Source: Candidatus Colimorpha pelethequi (lineage in GTDB: Bacteria; Bacteroidota; Bacteroidia; Bacteroidales; P3). Taken from it: a DNA stretch of 36,954 bases. Both the position numbers and the translations under genes were made by a program. The stretch is taken from the NCBI GenBank assembly GCA_018064245.1, contig JAGHVO010000014.1:1-36954 (forward strand). Direction: 5' to 3'. The notes below the pieces were generated by a model. That model searched no databases and was not told the origin of the DNA. It saw only the letters and a program-made list of their open reading frames with translations. Below are positions 10,202 to 29,759 of the stretch, piece by piece (positions within the stretch are counted from its first letter, which is position 1; each line of letters starts with the position of its first letter).

Positions 10202-10221
10202 CACAGGGCTTGCGCCCTGTG
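10202..10221. repeat. Hairpin element
   Basis: CACAGGGC, TTGC tetraloop, GCCCTGTG: a perfect 8-bp stem inside the non-coding mosaic. There is no T-run, so it is not a terminator. Probably part of a dispersed intergenic repeat. Confidence 0.6.
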
Positions 10222-10373
10222 CTATAATGTATCGCTCCTACAGAGCTTATTTTATTTCTCCTCACTTTTTTAGTGTGTTGATAAAATATGCACCTTTGTG
10301 CAGTGAAAATTAAGTGTGGTAAGTCGCGTTGTAGGCATTGTGATAAGCAGTGTGGTTGCAAATCCGGCCTTGA

Positions 10374-12048: not shown

Positions 12049-13371
12049 CTATCGGTCGTTCGTCAGTATAATTTGAGGCAGCAACGAAATGGCGTAAATG
12101 GGTAGTTCTATTACCGTCTCGCCATAAAGCATGGGCTCCATGGATGTTCTGATGATATGTTTGACGGGATATCGTTTTGAGAATTCCTTGAGTGATTTGG
12201 CTTGAAGATTTCGACCAGCTTTCGCCTCAATCGGGACGATTTCCCCGTTCAGCTGAACGACAAAGTCCACCTCGGCGACACCCACATCGGGGGTCCAATA
12301 ATGGATTTGAATCTCGGGCATCAACAACAATTCTTGCAATACAAACTGTTCAACCAAAGCCCCTTTGTACTGTGCAAAAAATTCGTTTCCATTAATCAAC
12401 GATTCCGCTGTCAGTCCGGCAATAGCACCCATAAGTCCAATGTCGAGGATGAAAAGCTTGAAGGCTTCCGTATCCTCAAACCCCGAAAGGGGCAATTCTC
12501 CTTTGTTTATGCGGGTTACTTTGTGTGTCATGCCAGCATCGCAAAGCCATTGGATGGCTGTCTCGAAATCCCTTGCCCGGGCTCCAGATTTGACCGCCGA
12601 AAAGACAAATTTTCGGTTTTCCTTTGCCAGCTGACCCGGTATGGAATCCCACAATATTTGCATTCGCTTGACAATCTCTTTGGGTGGGTGCTTGGAAAAA
12701 TCATGCTCATATGACCGCAAGATAGAAAGTTGCACCTTCCTTACCGCTTGATAATCTTTTTTTAATACAAAAGTTTTTACCACTTCAGGCATGCCACCTA
12801 TGTAGAAATATTGCCGCAATAAGTCGGCGTACTGCGACGCAAAAGCATTTATCGACACAGTGTCACGCGTTCGAAGCATATCAACCAATCCTTCCTTGCC
12901 AAGTGCCAACAGAAACTCCTCGAAAGAAAGTGGACGAATATAGAGAAAGTCAACCTTTCCGACGGGGAATGAGTCATCTTTATGGTCTATGACGCCCAGA
13001 AGCGAACCTGCCGCCATGACATGATATTGTGGTGCTTTGTCTTTGAAATACTTCAAAGCCAACAAACCACGCCGTGCATGTTGGATTTCGTCGAAAAACA
13101 GTAAAGTCTTCCTTGGAATTATTTTCTTCCCGCTTAACGACTGAATTGCAAGCAAAATCCTGTCGATATCGAAGTCCGCTTCAAAAAGTCCTTTAATTTG
13201 CTCGACATCTTCAAAGTTGACTTCCACGACATTGCTGAATTCAAGTTTTCCGAATTCCCTCGCCAACCATGTTTTTCCAACCTGACGAGCACCCTCTATG
13301 ATGAGTGGTTTGCGCTGCTCGTCTGGAGTGTTTTTCCATTGCTGCAATTGCACAAATGCCTGTCTATACAT
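12049..13371 (-). CDS. AAA+ ATPase with DUF4143-type PD-(D/E)XK-like C-terminus (copy 1)
   Basis: A 440-residue protein of the AAA_14/DUF4143 family (COG1373-like). Walker A is GARQVGKT at residues 27-34; Walker B is LLFFDEIQHAR near 90-100. A winged-helix-like middle follows. The C-terminal region has D369 (AEVDFVV), E382 and K384 (IEAKAG), spaced D-x12-E-x-K as in PD-(D/E)XK nuclease folds. The family is very common and multi-copy in Bacteroidetes and archaea; its biological role is not established. The same D-x12-E-x-K spacing occurs in the second ATPase (20010-21131). A 32-33-bp tandem array lies upstream (13516-13628). The start at 13371 follows a -7 box at 13389-13396 by 17 nt. Confidence 0.9.
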   Translation of the reverse strand: MYRQAFVQLQQWKNTPDEQRKPLIIEGARQVGKTWLAREFGKLEFSNVVEVNFEDVEQIKGLFEADFDIDRILLAIQSLSGKKIIPRKTLLFFDEIQHARRGLLALKYFKDKAPQYHVMAAGSLLGVIDHKDDSFPVGKVDFLYIRPLSFEEFLLALGKEGLVDMLRTRDTVSINAFASQYADLLRQYFYIGGMPEVVKTFVLKKDYQAVRKVQLSILRSYEHDFSKHPPKEIVKRMQILWDSIPGQLAKENRKFVFSAVKSGARARDFETAIQWLCDAGMTHKVTRINKGELPLSGFEDTEAFKLFILDIGLMGAIAGLTAESLINGNEFFAQYKGALVEQFVLQELLLMPEIQIHYWTPDVGVAEVDFVVQLNGEIVPIEAKAGRNLQAKSLKEFSKRYPVKHIIRTSMEPMLYGETVIELPIYAISLLPQIILTNDR

Positions 13372-13388
13372 ATACTTATATTTGAATG

Positions 13389-13396
13389 CAAAAGTA
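13389..13396 (-). promoter_or_regulatory. Promoter -7 box (TACTTTTG) for ATPase copy 1
   Basis: TACTTTTG on the minus strand matches TAnnTTTG and lies 17 nt before the ATG at 13371. No good -33 element was seen. Confidence 0.5.
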
Positions 13397-13461
13397 CGAT
13401 AAATTTTTGATTGTTTTCTTGTCGTTTCTGTTGTGTTTGAAACGTGATATATAATGTGATG

Positions 13462-13477
13462 TTTATCAATTGATAAA
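13462..13477. promoter_or_regulatory. 16-bp perfect palindrome, possible operator
   Basis: TTTATCAATTGATAAA is perfectly self-complementary. It sits between the -7 box of ATPase copy 1 and its tandem array, about 66 bp upstream of the box. Operator function is inference. Confidence 0.4.
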
Positions 13478-13515
13478 TATTGTTACTTTGTCTATTTTAA
13501 TCAAATGATTACACG

Positions 13516-13628
13516 TTTTGTTGACGACTTTTTAAGTATTTTTGCACATTTTGTTGACGACTTTTGGCTATTCTTGCACGTTTTATTGACGACTTTTTTG
13601 GTGTTCTGCCACATTTTATGGACGATGG
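13516..13628 (-). repeat. Tandem array of 32-33-bp units upstream of ATPase copy 1
   Basis: Three full units begin at 13516, 13549 and 13581 (periods 33 and 32), and a truncated fourth begins at 13614. On the plus strand each unit starts TTTTRTTGACGACTTTT; the first two end in TTGCACR and the third in TGCCACA. The fourth retains TTTTATGGACGA. An ACACG just before 13516 may be the remnant end of another unit. On the sense strand of the ATPase the core reads AAAAGTCGTCAAYAAAAYGTG. The whole unit is conserved, so there are no spacers as in CRISPR. Confidence 0.85.
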
Positions 13629-13656
13629 AAACATTCAATTGTATAATTGAGATAAT

Positions 13657-13711
13657 CTTCGTTTCTTTTCGCTTGTACGAAAAGAAACGAAGCAAAGAAA
13701 AGTACCCCGGC
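13657..13711 (-). repeat. Dispersed palindromic repeat, component b, copy 2
   Basis: Reverse-complement relative of 10495-10552. Contains a perfect 15-bp stem (CTTCGTTTCTTTTCG with CGAAAAGAAACGAAG) around a 6-nt loop, then the flank GCCGGGGTA on the minus strand. Confidence 0.85.
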
Positions 13712-13788
13712 CTGCGACCACCCCGCTTGCCACCCTTGCTTATCACATTGCTTTTTCTATATGTGTATTCCTACTATTTGCTTGGTTG

Positions 13789-13840
13789 TGACGGATATTG
13801 ATTGGAATTCTCGACTTGCCCAATGCGGACGGATGTCCGC
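13789..13840 (-). repeat. Dispersed repeat element, component a, copy 2
   Basis: Reverse complement matches 10067-10118 at 45 of 52 positions. Components a and b keep the same order and strand in both copies, but lie about 77 bp apart here and about 376 bp apart in copy 1. There the long inverted repeat and other sequence sit between them. Confidence 0.85.
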
Positions 13841-13928
13841 GTAGGGTGCGCCCTTGGTAGGTTCCAGCAAATTTTACGCAGGCGCTGGCCTTTCTTCTCA
13901 ATACTTCTTTCTGCCAAGAGAACGTGAA

Positions 13929-13946
13929 GAAAGTCCATGGACTTTC
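13929..13946. repeat. 18-bp perfect palindrome
   Basis: GAAAGTCCATGGACTTTC is perfectly self-complementary. It lies in a non-coding stretch near repeat component a, about 130 bp upstream of the BspA-like gene's promoter. Role unknown. Confidence 0.5.
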
Positions 13947-14076
13947 GATAGCGAAGCGGAGAATAAATTGATGTGGTTTGGAGGGAACCTCCAATAGGGG
14001 ACAAGACGTTTTTCTTCATTTATTCTACATTAGAGTTTTCTCGTGCGAAACTTGAATACTATTCACTATTTTTTTG

Positions 14077-14084
14077 TATCTTTG
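14077..14084 (+). promoter_or_regulatory. Promoter -7 box (TATCTTTG) for the leader of the BspA-like gene
   Basis: TATCTTTG with TTGA at 14052-14055 upstream (21-nt spacer). The upstream TACTATTCACTA plus T-run closely resembles the promoter at 16833-16861. Transcription would begin near 14090, about 280 nt before the ATG. Confidence 0.65.
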
Positions 14085-14089
14085 CAGTG

Positions 14090-14312
14090 TCAAAATTATT
14101 AATCAAAAACATATAGCAGATAATTAGATAGAAAATAACAAGTAAATAATAATCGAAAGCATTTTGCTATTCTTTGCACGTCCCGAAATCTGGTAAATTT
14201 CAAAACACAATGCAACCGAAAGCGGAAATGCTCACGAGTAACCGTGAGCTTTCTTGTTTGCATTGTAGGTGTTACCAGAACCTCGGACGTCAACAAAAGT
14301 TCGCGGTTTTTT
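14090..14312 (+). ncRNA. Candidate structured RNA leader ending in an intrinsic terminator
   Basis: Between the promoter at 14077 and the BspA-like ATG at 14372 lies an unusually long leader with three nested or adjacent helices. A 9-bp stem pairs ACAATGCAA (14207-14215) with TTGCATTGT (14258-14266). Inside it GCTCACG (14230-14236) pairs with CGTGAGC (14243-14249). A smaller GAAAT/ATTTC hairpin precedes them near 14184. The last helix is a terminator-like hairpin at 14281-14312. This could be a free small RNA or a cis-acting attenuator. I do not recognise a named family. The start and end are estimates from the promoter and terminator. Confidence 0.5.
14281..14312 (+). terminator. Intrinsic terminator-like hairpin inside the BspA leader
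   Basis: CCTCGGAC (14281-14288) pairs with GTTCGCGG (14299-14306) with one mismatch, and the stem extends by two A-T pairs into the run of six T that follows. It lies about 60 nt upstream of the ATG, so it would end transcription before the gene unless bypassed. Confidence 0.55.
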
Positions 14313-14371
14313 ACCAATATTGATAATGCTTTCGAATATTCAATAAATTAGAAATTCTAAAATCATTCAAC

Positions 14372-16723
14372 ATGAAAAAATATTTTGTTTTGTCAGTTTT
14401 GTTGGCTTGCTGTTTCGTCAGTAGAGCATACGATTTTAGTGCCGTTGCACCCACGGGGCAGACATTGTACTACAACATCTTGTCGGATTCAAGTTTGACT
14501 GTTGAAGTCACCTGTCCCGGTAACTATTGGTCGGGATACACTAAGCCTACGGATTCGTTGTCCATCCCATCCATGGTAAGTTATGGTGGAAATTTATATT
14601 CAGTGTCTGCAATTGGGGATAATGCTTTCTATTATTGCGACACACTCTCGAGTGTGACTATTCCTAATTCTGTGGCAACCATCGGTCATTATGCTTTCTC
14701 TAATTGCAGTGGTCTCGTAAGTGTAACCATCCCTGATTCTGTGACATCAATAGGAATATATACTTTCCAAAATTGCATTGGTCTTACGAGTGTGACTTTT
14801 AATGCGATTAATTGCATGACGACAAGTGTTACTATTATTTCGATGCCTATATTTGAAGGTTGTACTTCCTTGACTTCTATTACTATAGGAGAACAGGTAA
14901 CAACAATTCCATCTCGTATTTTCGATGGGTGTCGCGGATTGACAAGCGTGACCATCCCAAATTCTGTGGTTTCTATAGGCGCTTGTGCTTTTCAAAACTG
15001 CAGCGGTCTCACGAGCGTAATCATTCCCAATTCTGTGACGACAATCGGGGGATCTGCATTCTCTGGTTGCAGTGGTCTCACGAGCATGGTCATCCCTAAT
15101 TCCGTGACCTCAATCGGGGGAAGTGCTTTCCGAGATTGCAGTGGTCTCACAAGTATTGTCATTCCCAATTCTGTGATGACAATTGGAGTGTATGCTTTCA
15201 GTGGTTGCAGTGGTCTCACGAGCGTGGTCATCCCTAATTCCGTGACCTCGATCGGGGGATATGCTTTCAGTGGTTGCAGTGGCCTCGCAAGCATTGCCAT
15301 TCCCAATTCCGTTACATCGATTATGGAAGGTACTTTCTCTGGTTGTCGCGGTCTCACGAGCGTGACCATTCCCAATTCCGTGACATCAATTGGGTGGCAG
15401 GTTTTCTCTGGTTGCAGCGGTCTTACGAGCGTGACCATCGGCAATTCCGTGACCAGTATCGGAAGAAGAGTTTTTTATGGATGTTCAAGCTTGGATACTT
15501 TGTATTATAATGCTGAGGACTTTGTCTCGGATTATGATTGGGGAAATACAAGTAGCAACTACGATGACCGTGGGTTTCGTTGCTTAAATCTTCATGTAAT
15601 AATCATTGGCAACAATGTTCAGACACTGCCTTATGGTGCATTTTATGGTCAAGATGAGATTTCGAGTGTGAAGATTCCTAATTCAATGACATGGATTGCA
15701 GGGTACGCTTTCTATAATTGTAGTAGCCTTCGTACAATCTATTCCTATAACACGACAGCACCCTCGCTGGGTTTGAACACTTTTTATGGCTGTGCTATTC
15801 AGGATGTCTTCATCCCCTGTGGTAGTCATAGTTCATATAATTCAAGCTGGTATCAATATGGTGCTTATTTGGAAGAAACAGCAACTTTTGCGATAACATT
15901 GCATAGTGCAGATTCTTCGATGGGTGAGGTCTCGTTTTTGACATCAGTTTGTGTGGACCCGATTTCAATTGCAGCGACATCTAACTATGGCTATCATTTC
16001 ACGCAATGGAGCGACGGCGTTACCGACAATCCGCGTACTTTCGTTCTCACGCAAGACACCTCGTTTACCGCCCAATTTGGCTACAACTCCTATGCTGTTA
16101 TCAAAGTTTGTGATACACTTCAAGGAAATGTAATGGGTGAGGATTCCGCTGATTATCTTTCCAATGTTGTTTTGACGGCGGAGCCTAACTACGGCTACCA
16201 CTTCACGCAGTGGAGCGACGGCGTTACCGACAATCCCCGCACTTTCGTTCTCACGCAAGACACGACATTTGTGGCTGAATTTGACAGAAACAGCTACGCC
16301 GTTACTTGTGTTTCAGATGATGTCTCAATGGGACAGGTGCAAGGTGGCGGCACTTTCTTGTATCTCGACACCATAGTGTTTACTGCCGAGGCTGTAGAGC
16401 CCTATCGTTTCACTCATTGGCAGGATGGCGACACGGTAAATCCCCGCAGCATTGTGGTCTATTCCGATTCCACTTTTACTGCCTATTTCGAGAACAGTAC
16501 CGAAGGCATCGAGACGGTGCAGAAGAGCTACACGCTGACGGTGGTCGGCAATGCCATCCGCATCAGTGGCGCTATGGGCGAGACGATGAGAGTGTTTGAC
16601 GTAGTAGGACGCCAACTGCTGATAAAGAAACTCGACAGCGAGGAAATCCGACTGGACCAGACGGGCGTGTTCTTCGTTCAGATAGGCAACGCTCCGGCGG
16701 AGAAAGTTGTGTTGGTACGTTAG
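14372..16723 (+). CDS. BspA-like leucine-rich repeat surface protein with InlB-type repeats and T9SS sorting domain
   Basis: A 783-residue secreted protein. A signal peptide (MKKYFVLSVLLACCFVSRA) is followed by about twelve LRR_5 units of 23 residues (about residues 89-370), consensus CSGLTSVxIPNSVTSIGxxAFSG; one unit has a 6-residue insertion. A degenerate LRR-like stretch follows (about 371-500). Three divergent InlB B-repeat modules come next (about 505-710), with GYHFTQWSDGVTDNPRTF repeated almost exactly. The last ~70 residues form a type IX secretion C-terminal sorting domain (MRVFDVVGRQLL through GVFFVQIGN to EKVVLVR). It is probably exported by T9SS and anchored at the cell surface, where BspA-like proteins bind host proteins or other bacteria. 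A long structured leader precedes it. Confidence 0.93.
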   Translation: MKKYFVLSVLLACCFVSRAYDFSAVAPTGQTLYYNILSDSSLTVEVTCPGNYWSGYTKPTDSLSIPSMVSYGGNLYSVSAIGDNAFYYCDTLSSVTIPNSVATIGHYAFSNCSGLVSVTIPDSVTSIGIYTFQNCIGLTSVTFNAINCMTTSVTIISMPIFEGCTSLTSITIGEQVTTIPSRIFDGCRGLTSVTIPNSVVSIGACAFQNCSGLTSVIIPNSVTTIGGSAFSGCSGLTSMVIPNSVTSIGGSAFRDCSGLTSIVIPNSVMTIGVYAFSGCSGLTSVVIPNSVTSIGGYAFSGCSGLASIAIPNSVTSIMEGTFSGCRGLTSVTIPNSVTSIGWQVFSGCSGLTSVTIGNSVTSIGRRVFYGCSSLDTLYYNAEDFVSDYDWGNTSSNYDDRGFRCLNLHVIIIGNNVQTLPYGAFYGQDEISSVKIPNSMTWIAGYAFYNCSSLRTIYSYNTTAPSLGLNTFYGCAIQDVFIPCGSHSSYNSSWYQYGAYLEETATFAITLHSADSSMGEVSFLTSVCVDPISIAATSNYGYHFTQWSDGVTDNPRTFVLTQDTSFTAQFGYNSYAVIKVCDTLQGNVMGEDSADYLSNVVLTAEPNYGYHFTQWSDGVTDNPRTFVLTQDTTFVAEFDRNSYAVTCVSDDVSMGQVQGGGTFLYLDTIVFTAEAVEPYRFTHWQDGDTVNPRSIVVYSDSTFTAYFENSTEGIETVQKSYTLTVVGNAIRISGAMGETMRVFDVVGRQLLIKKLDSEEIRLDQTGVFFVQIGNAPAEKVVLVR
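14636..15481 (+). repeat. 69-bp tandem repeats encoding the LRR units
   Basis: Twelve units starting at TGC (Cys) codons. All are 69 bp except the third, which is 87 bp. The units from about 14987 to 15480 are the most alike at the DNA level (recurrent GGTTGCAGTGGTCTCACGAG, ATTCCCAATTCCGTGAC), so unequal recombination could change repeat number in frame. Confidence 0.85.
15989..16264 (+). repeat. Nearly identical 72-bp segments within two InlB-type repeats
   Basis: Segments at 15989-16060 and 16193-16264, 204 bp (68 codons) apart, differ at only a few positions while the surrounding repeat sequence is diverged. Recent duplication or gene conversion is likely. Confidence 0.75.
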
Positions 16724-16779
16724 GATTATACCTTGTTTATGTGTGGCGAAATCGTACGTTTGGGCTTATATAGAGTTTA

Positions 16780-16847
16780 TTCACTAATTCACTATTCTCT
16801 AGTTACTATTCACCAATCACTAATCACTAATTTACTATTCACTAATT
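16780..16847 (+). repeat. CACTAAT-type short repeats upstream of the DUF481 gene
   Basis: Eight or so imperfect 6-9-nt steps of TTCACTAAT, TCACTATT and ATCACTAAT run up to the promoter at 16854. Similar motifs precede the ATGs at 30111, 30855, 31258 and 28072 (minus strand). Confidence 0.7.
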
Positions 16848-16853
16848 TTTTCG

Positions 16854-16861
16854 TATCTTTG
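16854..16861 (+). promoter_or_regulatory. Promoter -7 box (TATCTTTG) for the DUF481 gene
   Basis: TATCTTTG, 35 nt before the ATG at 16897. The TACTATTCACTA and T-run just upstream (16833-16851) nearly match the promoter region of the BspA-like gene, with a 1-nt length difference. Confidence 0.65.
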
Positions 16862-16896
16862 CAAAAATTTTTTAGAAACTAATAATCTCAAACACA

Positions 16897-17622
16897 ATGA
16901 AACGTAAATTATTTGCAATCGTACTGATGCTGGCTTGTGTGGCTACTGTTTCCGCACAGAAGAAATGGTCCTACAATTTGGGCTTCGGTGGCGAACTCAA
17001 GAGTGGTAACGTCAACTCCATTACTTTCAACAACAATGGTGGTATCGAGCGTAACGACAGCGTGTTGTCGTGCAGCGCCGACTACAGCATCATCTATGGT
17101 GAAAAAGATCAAGTCAAATACGATGAAGGTTTCACCGCCAATGCAAAAGTTGACCTCTGGCAGTATGACCGTTGGTCTCCTTTCGCATCTGTTTCCTACA
17201 TCAACAACAAATTCAAGGGTTACGAATATAAGACCAGTCTCTTGCTTGGCGCTAAATATCGCATCTACACCCTCCCTGGCGTATGCGACTACTCTGTAAG
17301 TGCCGCTTTGGTATATGATTTTGTGCAATATACCGTTGAAGATGAGGCTTTGAAACCTCAGGTAATGCGTCTTTCTCTCCGCGCCAAGGGCAAGCACAAA
17401 ATCAGTGATGCCGTTACCGTAAAGGCAACTGTTTTCTATCAGCCTTCTTTCTATGATTTCGCTGGTGACTACATTGTTACGGGTATCGCTTCTCTCGAAT
17501 CCAAGCTCTCTGCTCACTTGTTCTTCGACATCAATTTCAACTACGAATATCGTAGCATCGTTCCTGAAGGTATCAAGAATCAGGATATCATCACTACGGC
17601 TTCTTTGAAACTGAAATTCTAA
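16897..17622 (+). CDS. DUF481 family outer-membrane beta-barrel protein
   Basis: A 241-residue protein with signal peptide MKRKLFAIVLMLACVATVSA and alternating beta-strand pattern throughout, ending in an aromatic outer-membrane C-terminus (SLKLKF). GFGGELKSGNVNSITFNNNGG and the spacing of aromatic strands fit DUF481 (YdiY-like, sometimes called salt-induced outer-membrane protein). It probably forms a small barrel in the outer membrane; no substrate or enzymatic role is known to me. It has its own promoter and is followed by the convergent GH3 gene with a 15-bp gap. Confidence 0.85.
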   Translation: MKRKLFAIVLMLACVATVSAQKKWSYNLGFGGELKSGNVNSITFNNNGGIERNDSVLSCSADYSIIYGEKDQVKYDEGFTANAKVDLWQYDRWSPFASVSYINNKFKGYEYKTSLLLGAKYRIYTLPGVCDYSVSAALVYDFVQYTVEDEALKPQVMRLSLRAKGKHKISDAVTVKATVFYQPSFYDFAGDYIVTGIASLESKLSAHLFFDINFNYEYRSIVPEGIKNQDIITTASLKLKF

Positions 17623-17637
17623 GCTTGCGTAGCTTTC

Positions 17638-19989
17638 CTACCAAGTGATAGGAATATCAATCAAATCGCGGTTTGCGCTGCTAAAACCTACTTGCAGCAC
17701 AAACCGCGATCCTTTTTTAGGCGCGATGAGTTGCTGTGAGGCTTCATCGTATTGGAGAAAACTGTCCGCTTCGAGGGGAATGGAGAACGCTATTTGCTGG
17801 CTGGACTGCGTGTCAGCTGTCACTTGCTTGAATCCGACAAGGCTTTTCTTGGGAGCCAAGGTGTCGTTCGGATTTTGTAGATAGACTTGTACGCATACGC
17901 GCTCTTGCGATAGCTTGGGATGCAGTTCAACGGTGATGTTTCCGTTCACGGTGTGTGTCGCGCTGTCGTACCAAACGGTATCTAATTGGTGCTGGCTGTA
18001 GCGCAATCCGTAGCCAAAAGGAAAAAGTGGCTCATCCTCCAAGTATCGATAGGTGCGCCGTTGCATGCTGTAGTCGTCGAAAGGTGGCAGTTGTTGTGTG
18101 TTGCGGTAGAAGGTGATGGGCAGGTTGCCGAAAGAGGCGTTGGCAGCCACTTGATGGACTCCGTCGTGACACGTCAGGTTCTCCCATAGCGCTTGTCCCA
18201 TGGCTTCGCCTCCGTACCACGTCACCACGATGGCATCCACGTAATCCTTGACGGCTTCCAGTCCGATGGCACTTCCCGTACATAGTACCAAAATGATAGG
18301 TTTGCCGGTCTTTTGTTTGATTGCTTGAATCATCTGTACCTGAATTTCGGGAAGTTCGATTTTGGTGCGGTCGCCTCGATAGAATCCTGGCAGATCGACT
18401 TGCAACTCTTCGCCTTCCACGGCAGGAGAGAGTCCTCCGACAAAAATCACGGCGTCGCTCTTTTGTAGTTGTTTCCAGAATTTTTTTGATACTTTGGTGC
18501 TGTTGGTCACAAGTCCGCAACCTTGCTCCTGGAACAGTGCGATGTTGTTGGGGCAGTTTTGCAGAAAAGCCTCTTTGATGCTGGTGTGGAGGAAGTGGTT
18601 CGGCGCACCATTGTAGTTGCCCAAAACCATGGCGGAATCGTCGTTGTTTGGACCTACCAACGCAAAGTTGCGTTTCACCGAAAGGTCTAAGGGTAGGATG
18701 CCGTTGTTTTGGAGCAGTACCATGCTTTGCTTGGCGACATTGACTTCAAGACGATGGGAGTTGTTTGCATTGTCGTAATAGGTGGCTATCGCTTGCATTG
18801 CTGCGGAATTCAAGCCTGTGGCTTTGCGTAACGCACTTGCCGTACTACAATTCTGTGGTATGTCGTCAATTCCCAATTCCATTCTTGTGGAGAGGATTCT
18901 GCGAAGGTGTTCGTCAATCTGTTTTTCTGAGATATAGCCCGAATCCACGGCATCGCGCAAGGCTTGCAGACCACTTCCACATTCCAGATCGACTTCCTTT
19001 CCGAAAGCGTCTTTTGCCGCCAGTGTGGCGGTGGAATGTGTTTCGTGTCTTGGCGTTTTGCTGTCTCGCTCCCAACAGTCGTTCAGCGCCCAGCAGTCGG
19101 TTACGATGATGCCGTTGTAGTGCCATCGGTTGCGCAGCATCTCTTCCAACAGCATTTCATTGGTGCTGCAGGGAATGCCGTTGAGTCGGTTGTAGGCACT
19201 CATTACTTGCTTCACGTCGCTGTGTTGGATGATATAGGCGAATGCGGGAAGGTAGGTCGTGTGTAAATCTCTTGCCGACACTTGTGCATCGAATTGGTGT
19301 CGCGTGCTTTCGGGACCGCTGTGAACGGCAAAATGTTTTAGGCAGGCTGCCGTTGCGAGTCTTTCCGAAAATGGCGCCTTTGAAGGCAGGTGTTGCAGCC
19401 CATTGACGGCGGCCAGACCCATCTGGGCGGTAAGCCATGGGTCTTCGCCAAAGGTCTCCATTCCTCTTCCCCAACGTGGGTCTCTGAAAATATTGATGTT
19501 GGGTGCGAAAAACGACAGTCCTGCATTGTCGGTGGACTGTACCGCAGGATGAAGCGTCGTACTGTCTGTCATTTGGCAAAGATCGGAGAGTATGGCTTCA
19601 ATAGATTTGTCGCTGTTGTTGTAAGAACTGTCTATTTGGGAGGCGAGGTACTTGATTCTCGCTTCAAGGGCAACGACGTTGAATGTCTTGCGTATCAAAG
19701 CGGTGTCCCATGTCGCCGCCAATGCGATGGGCATGGGAAAAACCGTGGCGCGACCGTTGCGTGCCACGCCGTGCAGGGCTTCGTTCCACCAGCTGTATGC
19801 GCCGAGTCCGAGTCTTGAAATGGGTGGGTTGCGGTGCTCCATCAGCGAGAGCTTCTCGTCCAAGGTCAGGTGTTCTAGCAAATCCTCTATGCGTTGGGAT
19901 ATGGGCAAAGAGGTGTCTTGGTATTGCTGCGCCGTGGCGCGCCAAGGTGCGACGATAATAAGTATCAGTATGAGGCATAATCGTTTCAT
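17638..19989 (-). CDS. Glycoside hydrolase family 3 (beta-glucosidase/beta-xylosidase-like), secreted
   Basis: A 783-residue GH3 enzyme. I start it at the ATG at 19989 (MKRLCLILILIIVAPWRATAQ), a signal peptide; the frame is open another 74 codons but those overlap the ATPase gene in another frame. The N-terminal barrel has WWNEALHGVARNG, DPRWGRGMETFGEDP, KHFAVHSGPE and the nucleophile region IIVTDCWALND with Asp about 298. The alpha/beta sandwich and a C-terminal fibronectin-III-like domain (LVGFKQV near 750) follow. The DC after the nucleophile Thr recalls the SDC of the beta-xylosidase branch, so xylosidase is a fair guess. It begins 20 bp after the ATPase stop and is probably cotranscribed with it. 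Confidence 0.92.
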   Translation of the reverse strand: MKRLCLILILIIVAPWRATAQQYQDTSLPISQRIEDLLEHLTLDEKLSLMEHRNPPISRLGLGAYSWWNEALHGVARNGRATVFPMPIALAATWDTALIRKTFNVVALEARIKYLASQIDSSYNNSDKSIEAILSDLCQMTDSTTLHPAVQSTDNAGLSFFAPNINIFRDPRWGRGMETFGEDPWLTAQMGLAAVNGLQHLPSKAPFSERLATAACLKHFAVHSGPESTRHQFDAQVSARDLHTTYLPAFAYIIQHSDVKQVMSAYNRLNGIPCSTNEMLLEEMLRNRWHYNGIIVTDCWALNDCWERDSKTPRHETHSTATLAAKDAFGKEVDLECGSGLQALRDAVDSGYISEKQIDEHLRRILSTRMELGIDDIPQNCSTASALRKATGLNSAAMQAIATYYDNANNSHRLEVNVAKQSMVLLQNNGILPLDLSVKRNFALVGPNNDDSAMVLGNYNGAPNHFLHTSIKEAFLQNCPNNIALFQEQGCGLVTNSTKVSKKFWKQLQKSDAVIFVGGLSPAVEGEELQVDLPGFYRGDRTKIELPEIQVQMIQAIKQKTGKPIILVLCTGSAIGLEAVKDYVDAIVVTWYGGEAMGQALWENLTCHDGVHQVAANASFGNLPITFYRNTQQLPPFDDYSMQRRTYRYLEDEPLFPFGYGLRYSQHQLDTVWYDSATHTVNGNITVELHPKLSQERVCVQVYLQNPNDTLAPKKSLVGFKQVTADTQSSQQIAFSIPLEADSFLQYDEASQQLIAPKKGSRFVLQVGFSSANRDLIDIPITW

Positions 19990-20009
19990 TTCGTGCGACT
20001 TGTTTGGTA

Positions 20010-21131
20010 TTACAACAAAAACTCTTCGATGTTTTTGGGTGTGATGATTTTGAACTCGTGGTTGGGGTAGGCTTGCTTGAACGATTCGGGTAGTCTCGCC
20101 TTCCGTAATGGGTTGAATTTCATTTCGTAGGCGCGCAGTATGCCGTCCTCGTCTTCTACGTAGTCTATCTCTGTTTGGTCCTTGGTGCGCCAAAAATATT
20201 TGTTGCACCAAATGCCGTTGTACTCAATCATTTTCATCCGCTCGGAGATGACGAAGTTCTCCCAAAGCGCTCCGTTGTCGCTGCGGATGTCAATGGGCGA
20301 GAAGTTGGAGATAAGCGCATTGCGGACGCCGTTGTCGTAGAAGTAAATCTTGCGACTGTTCTTGAGCTCGCTGCGCATGTTACGCTTGAGACTGCTGAGG
20401 CGGAACACGATATAGGCTTTCTCCAACATGTCGATATAGCTCTCGATGGTTTTGGCATCGAGTCCAACGGTTTGTGACAGTTCGTTATAGGATACCTGCG
20501 AACCGATTTGATAGGCGAGTGCTTGTAGCAGCAATACTAATTTGGTGGGCTTTTTAATGCCGCCCAAAGCAAAGATGTCTTTGTAGAGGTAGCTGTCGGT
20601 TAGTTGCTTCAGTATCTTTTTCTCGTTTCCTTTGGATGTTACGACCTCGGGGTAGTAGCCGTAAATCATCCTGTGAGGCAACATGCGCAACTCGGTTTGT
20701 AAGCCATGATGATCTACCATTTCGCCAAACGAAATGGGGTAGATGTGGTTCTCCCATTTCCTGCCTGTGAGTGGTTCGTTGAGACGGTTGGCGAGTTCAA
20801 ACGATGAACTGCCTGTGGCGAGAAGCCTGATATCAGGCATTTGGTCGGTGATGATTTTCATACGAAGTCCGATGTCGGGTATGCGTTGCGCCTCGTCAAT
20901 GACAATGGTCTTTTTGTTGCCGATAATGCTGCGCAGTTTCGGTGAGGTCATGTCAGAAAACAATAGTTGCGTATCAACATCGTCTCCGTAGAACCAGAAA
21001 TTTGAACCGTTTTCAGGAAACATCTCTTTGAGAATGGTCGTTTTTCCCACTTGCCTACAGCCAATGAGTATGATTGCTTTGCTGCTATCAAGTTGGTCTG
21101 TAATTATTTGGTTGATTTTTCGTGTTACCAT
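20010..21131 (-). CDS. AAA+ ATPase with DUF4143-type PD-(D/E)XK-like C-terminus (copy 2)
   Basis: A 373-residue AAA_14/DUF4143-family protein, clearly diverged from copy 1. Walker A is GCRQVGKT (residues 24-31); Walker B is IVIDEAQRIPDIG; the sensor region ATGSSSFELANRLNEPLTGR is typical. The C-terminal tail carries D323 (TEIDYV), E336 and K338 (YEMKFN), the same D-x12-E-x-K spacing as copy 1. The ATG at 21131 follows a -7 box at 21151-21158. A six-copy 32-bp array begins 18 bp upstream of that box. The GH3 gene starts 20 bp after its stop. The function of the family is not established; ATP-driven DNA remodelling or cleavage is inference from the motifs. Confidence 0.9.
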   Translation of the reverse strand: MVTRKINQIITDQLDSSKAIILIGCRQVGKTTILKEMFPENGSNFWFYGDDVDTQLLFSDMTSPKLRSIIGNKKTIVIDEAQRIPDIGLRMKIITDQMPDIRLLATGSSSFELANRLNEPLTGRKWENHIYPISFGEMVDHHGLQTELRMLPHRMIYGYYPEVVTSKGNEKKILKQLTDSYLYKDIFALGGIKKPTKLVLLLQALAYQIGSQVSYNELSQTVGLDAKTIESYIDMLEKAYIVFRLSSLKRNMRSELKNSRKIYFYDNGVRNALISNFSPIDIRSDNGALWENFVISERMKMIEYNGIWCNKYFWRTKDQTEIDYVEDEDGILRAYEMKFNPLRKARLPESFKQAYPNHEFKIITPKNIEEFLL

Positions 21132-21150
21132 TGTTGTCTCTGTTTTGGTG

Positions 21151-21158
21151 CAAATTTA
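21151..21158 (-). promoter_or_regulatory. Promoter -7 box (TAAATTTG) for ATPase copy 2
   Basis: TAAATTTG on the minus strand, 19 nt before the ATG at 21131. The expected -33 position falls at the edge of the tandem array (21177), so array occupancy could affect this promoter. Confidence 0.55.
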
Positions 21159-21176
21159 CAAATATTTTTTCAAATA

Positions 21177-21360
21177 ATTCCTAAAAAGTGGCGATATTTT
21201 GGGAATGTATTCCTGAAAGTAGGCGATATTTGTGGATTGTATTCCTAAAATGCAGCGATAATTTCGGACTATATTCCTAAAATTGGGCGATATTTTTGGA
21301 ATGTATTCCTAAAAAGTGGCGATAATTTCGGAATATATTCCTGAAATTAGGCGATATTGT
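21177..21360 (-). repeat. Six-copy 32-bp tandem array upstream of ATPase copy 2
   Basis: Units begin at 21177, 21209, 21241, 21273, 21305 and 21337, a period of exactly 32 bp. On the plus strand each unit starts ATTCCTRAAA and has RGCGATA in the centre; the first five end in GGAAT, GGATT or GGACT plus GT or AT, and the sixth decays after GATATT. In the first unit ATTCCTAAAA can pair with TTTTGGGAAT, a 10-bp stem with one wobble and a 10-nt loop; other units keep most of this. The array lies between the rocD terminator and the ATPase promoter. No spacers, so not CRISPR. Confidence 0.92.
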
Positions 21361-21435
21361 AGTGTCTTGGACAGCGCGAATATTTTTTGGAAAACCTATT
21401 AGGATCGTTTGTTGGGAATGGCGATGGAAGAGCGT

Positions 21436-29694: not shown

Positions 29695-29759
29695 CAACTC
29701 GAAAACGGAGGAAGCCGAAAATCCTTTTTAGAGTAGGCAAAACAAAAAAACATTAATAC

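What the first reader, a model, noticed from the sequence alone, without database searches (positions are those of the whole stretch)
12049..21368. Two AAA+/nuclease-like ATPases, each with its own 32-33-bp tandem array upstream: a candidate ATPase-array module
Seen: two diverged DUF4143-type ATPases (12049-13371 and 20010-21131) share Walker motifs and an identical D-x12-E-x-K spacing at the C-terminus. Each has a spacer-less tandem array just upstream of its promoter: 3.4 units of 32-33 bp at 13516-13628, and 6 units of exactly 32 bp at 21177-21360. The unit sequences are unrelated, but period and placement agree. Known: the family is abundant and of unsettled function; D...ExK is a PD-(D/E)XK signature. 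Inference: each ATPase recognises its own array, as operator, nucleation site or self-marker, in a maintenance, selfish or defence role. A 32-bp period is about three helical turns, putting sites on one DNA face.
Basis: partly seen in the sequence, partly recalled or inferred. Interest (0 to 1): 0.78.

Follow-up and report, generated by a model that had tools for sequence, protein, structure and literature searches.

The report
Defence-like ATPases with self-operator repeat arrays
A very common, unexplained family of bacterial ATPase-nucleases (listed as a candidate phage-defence system) often carries, in front of its gene, a private row of short DNA repeats that the protein itself appears to read, which hands experimenters the missing DNA target of these proteins.

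Summary
Both window ATPases are AAA_14+DUF4143 proteins matching PADLOC's PDC-S01 candidate defence family, and each has a 32-33-bp tandem array upstream. All 12 DUF4143 matches of this genome have an array (period 23 in 7, 32-33 in 5). In one subfamily, 78 of 79 usable loci from Bacteroidota, Bacillota, Spirochaetota, Gardnerella and a Lentisphaeria bin carry 2-7 in-register 23-bp units; the 79th is partly masked. Control genes rarely do (5 of 283).

The protein appears to read the array. Repeat letters covary with residues at the predicted winged-helix recognition helix, wing and a nuclease-domain loop: Lys/Arg at residue 344 goes with C at unit position 2, other residues with non-C, in 79 of 80 proteins. 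ATPase 2's own subfamily independently points to its recognition helix (residues 225, 227). Arrays keep one orientation (90 of 90) and often base-exact register with the promoter, as operators do.

Best explanation: a AAA+-wHTH-nuclease that binds its own operator array and autoregulates, probably by repression. Defence, trigger, and any further array role are unproven. ATPase 1's array lies about 115 bp from its promoter, and several subfamilies lack arrays. I found no description of the arrays in the paper library searched.

The parts
12049..13371 (-). ATPase 1, AAA_14 + DUF4143 (440 aa); PDC-S01-type (PDLC04786)
13389..13396 (-). predicted -7 box TACTTTTG of ATPase 1
   Evidence: the motif TAnnTTTG is recalled
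13512..13626 (-). array 1: 3.5 units of 32-33 bp, core GTCGTCAAYAAAAYGTG; outside it the genome has only two sites with 2 mismatches
20010..21131 (-). ATPase 2, AAA_14 + DUF4143 (373 aa); PDC-S01-type (PDLC04789)
20340..20549 (-). predicted winged helix of ATPase 2 (residues 195-264); recognition helix residues 226-238
   Evidence: AlphaFold2 model mb8364dcaf88e, mean pLDDT 84.8; wing loop 251-256 is below 50
20451..20459 (-). codons of residues D225 to K227; 225 and 227 covary with half-site positions 4 and 5
20118..20165 (-). predicted catalytic D323-x12-E336-x-K338 of the nuclease-like domain
   Evidence: invariant in alignments
21151..21158 (-). predicted -7 box TAAATTTG of ATPase 2
   Evidence: motif recalled
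21177..21358 (-). array 2: 5.7 units of 32 bp, five with a GGAAT-nn-ATTCC-type palindrome; a half-degenerate sixth palindrome centred at 21175.5 lies 17 bp from the -7 box

Best explanation
Each array is the promoter-phased, multi-copy operator of the ATPase gene it precedes. The protein (AAA+ ATPase, winged helix, PD-(D/E)XK-like nuclease) binds the repeats with its recognition helix and wing, and in the WCGKTT subfamily also with a loop of the nuclease-like domain. Copies of the protein line up on successive repeats, presumably joined through the AAA+ domain, and set their own expression, most likely by repression. Repeat letters and protein residues evolve together, so paralogues in one genome mostly have separate operators. 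Shown by computation: arrays, their gene and period specificity, orientation and promoter register, covariation, predicted fold. Inferred: actual binding, oligomerisation, sign of regulation, and that the nuclease is released or activated on infection.
For: 12 of 12 DUF4143 matches in the genome carry arrays. Family 62 of 105 vs 12 of 418 control genes at self-score >=14 for offsets 22-24/31-34. WCGKTT subfamily: 78 of 79 loci with >=2 in-register 23-bp units; the other (L190) has 80 N in 409 bases, and L172 was dropped for lack of upstream DNA; 5 of 283 control genes at score >=12. 375-aa subfamily (ATPase 2): palindrome pairs 31-34 bp apart in 78 of 120 vs 14 of 600 shuffles and 4 of 418 control genes, peak at 32. 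440-aa subfamily (ATPase 1): at score >=14 offset 33 in 25 and 32 in 12 of 52; offsets 25-31 and 35-50 in 0. Covariation against DNA letters evolved on the protein tree: residue 344 x unit position 2 (z 9.4, 0 of 200 simulations; 79 of 80 consistent; Bacteroidota 45 of 46, Bacillota 22 of 22, Spirochaetota/Actinomycetota/Lentisphaerota 9 of 9, the last two with only 2 non-Lys/Arg rows each), residue 252 x position 11 (D-C 33/39, E-G 21/25, K-G 5/5), residue 284 x position 3 (R-C 70/73, Q-A 7/7). Second subfamily: residue 227 x half-site 5 (K/R/H-G 17 of 28, E-C 7/12, N-T 9/12; z 5.8, the top pair) and 225 x half-site 4 (D-G 25/41; z 4.3). These residues lie at the start of the recognition helix, in the wing and in a hairpin loop of the models. 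Orientation 90 of 90 the same; core end to -7 box 37-38 bp in 23 of 45 Bacteroidota and 27 bp in 7; -35 starts 5 bp after the core in 17 and 16 bp before its end in 11 of 38 other loci; palindrome centre 15-17 bp before the -7 box in 25 of 58.
Against: No binding or expression experiment. Array 1 ends about 115 bp from its -7 box, so an occlusion model does not fit ATPase 1 as it stands. Some branches lack arrays: at score >=14, 11 of 12 PRQxGK-type, 4 of 4 LFGARQTGKST-type and 6 of 8 GxRGxGKT-type genes, and 5 of 6 distant plasmid copies (the sixth, L411, is weak, 13.5 at offset 23; two of the five, L410 and L413, have one long palindrome before the start). In the 375-aa subfamily 42 of 120 had no clear pair. 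Covariation has exceptions, and many pairs were tested: 106 of 3863 reached 0 of 200 where about 19 are expected by chance, and 25 of 1496 in the second subfamily where about 7 are expected, so only the leading pairs are persuasive; in the second subfamily pairs with residues 126, 32, 207 and 138, away from the helix, rank beside or above 225. In Bacteroidota and Bacillota the WCGKTT array sits beside, not on, the core promoter, which also suits activation. A plain autoregulator does not explain the conserved nuclease residues.
Confidence: 0.8

Rival explanations
1. The array is mainly a loading or holding platform: the ATPase oligomer assembles on it and acts from there (sensing infection, licensing the nuclease), and promoter control is a by-product.
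For: Arrays have 2-8 units (90 arrays), more than a simple operator needs; ATPase and nuclease residues are conserved; a nuclease-domain residue covaries with the repeat; structural neighbours include ORC/Cdc6 origin binders and, for ATPase 2, STAND/Avs defence proteins; array 1 is about 115 bp from its promoter.
Against: Fixed orientation and frequent base-exact register with the promoter in several phyla is not needed for a platform.
Confidence: 0.3
2. The array is a self-marker or the module is a selfish cassette: the nuclease spares or is restrained by DNA that carries its own array.
For: Accessory presence: in 5 of 29 genus relatives examined the same two neighbour genes are adjacent without ATPase or array; copies with arrays on plasmids and viral contigs; paralogues with different arrays in one genome.
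Against: A marker needs no fixed phase to the promoter; two paralogues (L003, L007) share one motif; no targets identified; two unit patterns gave 0 hits in the viral collection (no others tried).
Confidence: 0.12
3. Another host protein, not the ATPase, binds the arrays.
For: Binding was not measured.
Against: Unit sequence differs between most paralogues in one genome and covaries with the adjacent protein's recognition helix.
Confidence: 0.04
4. The repeats are chance or slippage products of AT-rich intergenic DNA.
For: Simple 6-8-bp repeats are common between genes here.
Against: Sharp 23, 32 or 33-bp periods by subfamily, controls and shuffles.
Confidence: 0.01

Closest known systems
PDC-S01 (PADLOC phage-defence candidate, single gene)
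   Same: Both window proteins match PDC-S01 models over nearly full length (4.6e-165 and 3.2e-159). Described as ATPase fused to PD-(D/E)XK, fourth most common defence across prokaryotes, validation of most PDCs pending (PMC12988326, passages read).
   Different: The passages and word counts seen mention no array or operator: 'tandem' 0 occurrences, 'repeat' 4 and in other senses.
RptR, repressor of a phage-defence island
   Same: Defence-linked autorepressor acting through three direct repeats with palindromes at its promoter (PMC12255303, abstract and passages).
   Different: 9-kDa dedicated repressor, 9-bp repeats, one conserved motif; here the ATPase-nuclease itself would bind long-period repeats that differ by gene.
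Controller (C) proteins of restriction-modification systems (recalled)
   Same: Autoregulation of a DNA-cutting system through operators beside its own promoter.
   Different: Small HTH protein separate from the nuclease; two sites, not an array.
Iteron-binding initiators and ORC/Cdc6 (iterons recalled)
   Same: Winged helix and direct repeats; both models match SSO1545 (2fna) first, with ORC/Cdc6-DNA structures among the next hits.
   Different: Nuclease-like domain; low structural similarity (TM about 0.2-0.5); origin function not tested.

Membership tests
PDC-S01 | match to PADLOC PDC-S01 models | tested here: met
PDC-S01 | ATPase plus PD-(D/E)XK-like domain | tested here: met
   Pfam AAA_14 + DUF4143; conserved D-x12/13-E-x-K. 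The nuclease fold was not confirmed on its own: full-length Foldseek lists show one such nuclease, Card1, for the L186 model and none that I recognise in the top 50 for ATPase 2; that Card1 is of this fold is recalled
PDC-S01 | antiviral activity | not testable with these tools
   no experiment; reported as pending for most PDCs
PDC-S01 | embedded in defence genes | tested here: inconclusive
   only the nearest neighbours were scanned (fucosidase, LRR protein, GH3, aminotransferase, one 98-aa ORF without hit): none is a defence gene
Iteron replication module | initiator (Rep) domain | tested here: not met
   Pfam finds only AAA_14, DUF4143 and a sub-threshold AAA_22
Iteron replication module | origin of replication at the repeats | not testable with these tools
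   -
CRISPR array | spacers between repeats | tested here: not met
   units are contiguous
RptR-type repressor | small dedicated repressor, TAGCTA palindromes | tested here: not met
   373- and 440-aa ATPases; palindrome GGAATnnATTCC in array 2
Autoregulated operator (works like) | sites in fixed register with own promoter, read by own product | tested here: inconclusive
   register and covariation met; binding and regulation not measured

The most novel reading that the evidence does not exclude
The arrays are DNA addresses. Each PDC-S01 ATPase-nuclease forms a spiral oligomer on its own coded array that both silences its gene and holds the nuclease in check; infection (for example loss or remodelling of host DNA or transcription) breaks the complex, releasing effector and promoter at once. 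A genome with a dozen paralogues would run a set of separately addressed alarms.
Probability: 0.15. Interest if true: 0.93.

Novelty: new variant of a known kind. Interest (0 to 1): 0.82.

Why it matters
The family is counted in tens of thousands of genes (9,986 archaeal and 29,494 bacterial PDC-S01 in PMC12988326) and is the most frequent individual locus in a rumen survey (10,358 in PMC13356809), yet its ligand and trigger are not described in what I could read. The arrays give a specific DNA partner for many of these proteins and a partial residue-to-base code, so binding, regulation and activation become directly testable, and array presence can be used to sort the family into subfamilies.

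Tried and rejected
Chance or simple-repeat origin: rejected by controls. CRISPR: no spacers. Widely dispersed repeat: the motifs of array 2, array 1 and L003/L007 form no further array in the genome (the other units were not searched). Sequence search of the PDB gave nothing useful. Single-protein scans of viral contigs found no relatives; alignment scans found 8 and 2. Two unit patterns in viral contigs: 0 hits. PHROGs and NCBIfam: no family. TRF alone missed 2-copy arrays that are visible by eye, so palindrome and self-alignment scores were added. First-ATG starts are unreliable where the open frame runs into the array (L054, L111, L113), so upstream regions of the mixed family set were anchored on Walker A. 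Helical phasing was tried: the resultant is 0.76 at 10.5 bp but 0.75-0.76 at 10-12 bp, so the 10-bp ladder is only suggestive. The GH3 query was out of frame; one search repeated it in frame with the same five loci. Archaeal copies were not examined. Family members were a sample: of the matches listed I used those whose loci came with the search plus 40 fetched stretches. Rows dropped: L172 (19 bp upstream), 4 family members without Walker A, proteins over 90% identical before covariation (90 to 80, 78 to 73); L110, L163 and L190 gave no in-register 23-bp chain (L190 partly masked).

Literature: 'DUF4143' is in 1 paper (listing only) and 'PDC-S01' in 3 (passages of two read; the third seen as listing). 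None of the titles, abstract starts or passages I saw describes the arrays. Preprints and most subscription papers are outside the library, and the founding PDC paper was not among the 8 of 11 papers listed.
Full report
ATPase 1 (12049-13371, minus) and ATPase 2 (20010-21131, minus) are AAA_14 + DUF4143 proteins. PADLOC names both PDC-S01, a single-gene phage-defence candidate. [quoted passage not shown]

Observation. The same genome has 12 DUF4143 matches, 11 above the family cut-off, and all 12 have a tandem array upstream: period 23 bp in seven, 32-33 in five, mostly with different unit sequences (the weakest is L010 with 1.9 copies). In 282.8 kb of other stretches of this genome no comparable set appears, though simple repeats and one 22-bp array in L070 do.

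Generality. For 105 sampled family members with enough upstream sequence from this genome, 20 genus genomes and 30 order genomes, self-alignment of the upstream DNA peaks at offsets 23, 32 and 33 and their multiples; 62 of 105 pass a score of 14 at 22-24/31-34 bp, against 12 of 418 other genes of the same loci. By TRF the figures are 46 of 107 and 9 of 440; five of those nine windows overlap the upstream region of a divergent family member. The period goes with the subfamily. Control genes of the same loci: 5 of 283. These 80 are the closest relatives of the query, so the rate holds for this subfamily, not the whole family. Among 11 plasmid copies, those of Bacteroides (4), Collinsella (2), Treponema saccharophilum and Prosthecochloris show repeats of 23 or 32-33 bp (two units only in some), the Desulfosarcina one does not, and Actinomyces and Lentilactobacillus ones are weak. 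Of nine viral-contig copies examined, two of them (L402, L405) the same stretch, L398 and L403 are faint and the others clear; L407 was not examined. ATPase 2's subfamily (120 members) shows palindrome pairs 31-34 bp apart in 78, against 14 of 600 shuffles and 4 of 418 control genes, with 43 at 32 bp, 6 at 33 and 0 at 28-31 or 34-41 at score 22. ATPase 1's subfamily (52 members) peaks at 33 (25) and 32 (12). Several other subfamilies lack arrays.

The protein reads the repeat. I aligned 23-bp units and proteins for 80 WCGKTT loci (under 90% identical) and scored every unit position against every well-filled protein column, with a null in which the DNA letter evolves on the protein tree. Of 3863 pairs 106 beat all 200 simulations, about 19 being expected. 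The strongest (L003 numbering) are unit position 2 with residue 344, where all 46 Lys and 3 of 4 Arg go with C and 0 of 30 others do (three of these without a majority letter); position 11 with 252; position 3 with 284; position 2 with 281; positions 3 and 8 with 251; position 11 with 246. The position 3 changes are few (4 on the tree) and may be one clade. The 344 rule holds in Bacteroidota (45 of 46; exception L244), Bacillota (22 of 22) and the small rest (9 of 9), the last two with two informative non-Lys/Arg rows each. In the AlphaFold2 model of L186 (pLDDT 90.9; residue numbers 4 lower) 246-255 form the turn and start of the recognition helix, 281 and 284 lie in the wing (its loop partly below pLDDT 60), and 344 in a hairpin loop of the nuclease-like domain. 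Seven of the ten best average-corrected pairs fall in these regions, which hold 8.6% of columns, but I drew the regions after seeing the pairs and the model. ATPase 2's subfamily was treated alone (73 proteins): the best pair is half-site position 5 with residue 227, and position 4 with 225 ranks fifth; pairs with residues 126, 32 and 207 between them are not at the helix. Residues 225 and 227 stand at the start of the recognition helix in its model (pLDDT 84.8). The window gene has D225, K227 and the half-site GGAAT, as the trend predicts.

Why an operator. All 90 scorable arrays have the same orientation to the gene. The unit core ends 37-38 bp before the Bacteroidota -7 box in 23 of 45 loci with a box (51 in all) and 27 bp in 7; in the other 38 loci with a promoter match the -35 hexamer begins 5 bp after the core in 17 and 16 bp before its end in 11, so there the last repeat overlaps the promoter. 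In ATPase 2's subfamily the palindrome centre lies 15-17 bp before the -7 box in 25 of 58, that is between the two promoter elements, and 14 bp after the box start in 8; the window's sixth, half-degenerate palindrome is at 17 bp (coordinates; the detector took an upstream pair, 145 bp). That position favours repression; the WCGKTT position beside the promoter in Bacteroidota and Bacillota would also allow activation. Array 1, about 115 bp from its -7 box, is an exception.

Other facts. In 5 of 29 genus relatives the aminotransferase and GH3 genes that flank ATPase 2 are adjacent, 344-557 bp apart (about 1.5 kb in the window), with no match to ATPase or array; the other 24 show no GH3 within the 1.5-kb flank and say nothing. 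So array and gene come and go together at this site. The three unit motifs tested form arrays only before their own genes, though L003 and L007 share one motif, so separation is not complete. Foldseek places both models nearest to the archaeal AAA+ protein SSO1545; further hits include ORC/Cdc6 and clamp loaders for both, Card1, CED-4 and MalT for L186, and STAND and Avs proteins for ATPase 2, with low TM-scores.

Judgement. Recognition of the array by its own ATPase is strongly supported by computation; operator function is well supported; sign, trigger, nuclease role and defence are inferred. It works like an autoregulated defence promoter such as RptR's (PMC12255303, abstract and passages) but with the effector itself as the likely reader of a long-period, gene-specific array.

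Noticed in passing
window 13640-14000: Dispersed intergenic repeat: 22 matches in the genome counting itself, six others of over 100 bp at 88-92% identity. It begins just beyond the far end of array 1, and one copy (C76:23477-23587) lies just beyond the far end of the array of gene L002.
   Followed up: partly
window 10202-10247 and 29705-29739: Rfam matches Acido-Lenti-1 RNA and DUF805b RNA above gathering score.
   Followed up: no
L410 and L413, just before the start codon: Array-less distant relatives (Moraxella bovis and Runella plasmids) carry one long palindrome before the gene, perhaps the single-site form of the same control (by eye).
   Followed up: no
L003 and L007: Two paralogues in one genome share the unit core TCAACTTCCCGAA (8 exact sites, all in their two arrays), so cross-regulation is possible.
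   Followed up: partly
L163 (Collinsella plasmid): 23-bp array whose unit looks inverted relative to the gene by eye; it gave no score in the orientation test, so it is not among the 90.
   Followed up: no
L054, L111, L113: Open frames extend upstream through the array, so automatic annotation may call false N-terminal repeats.
   Followed up: no
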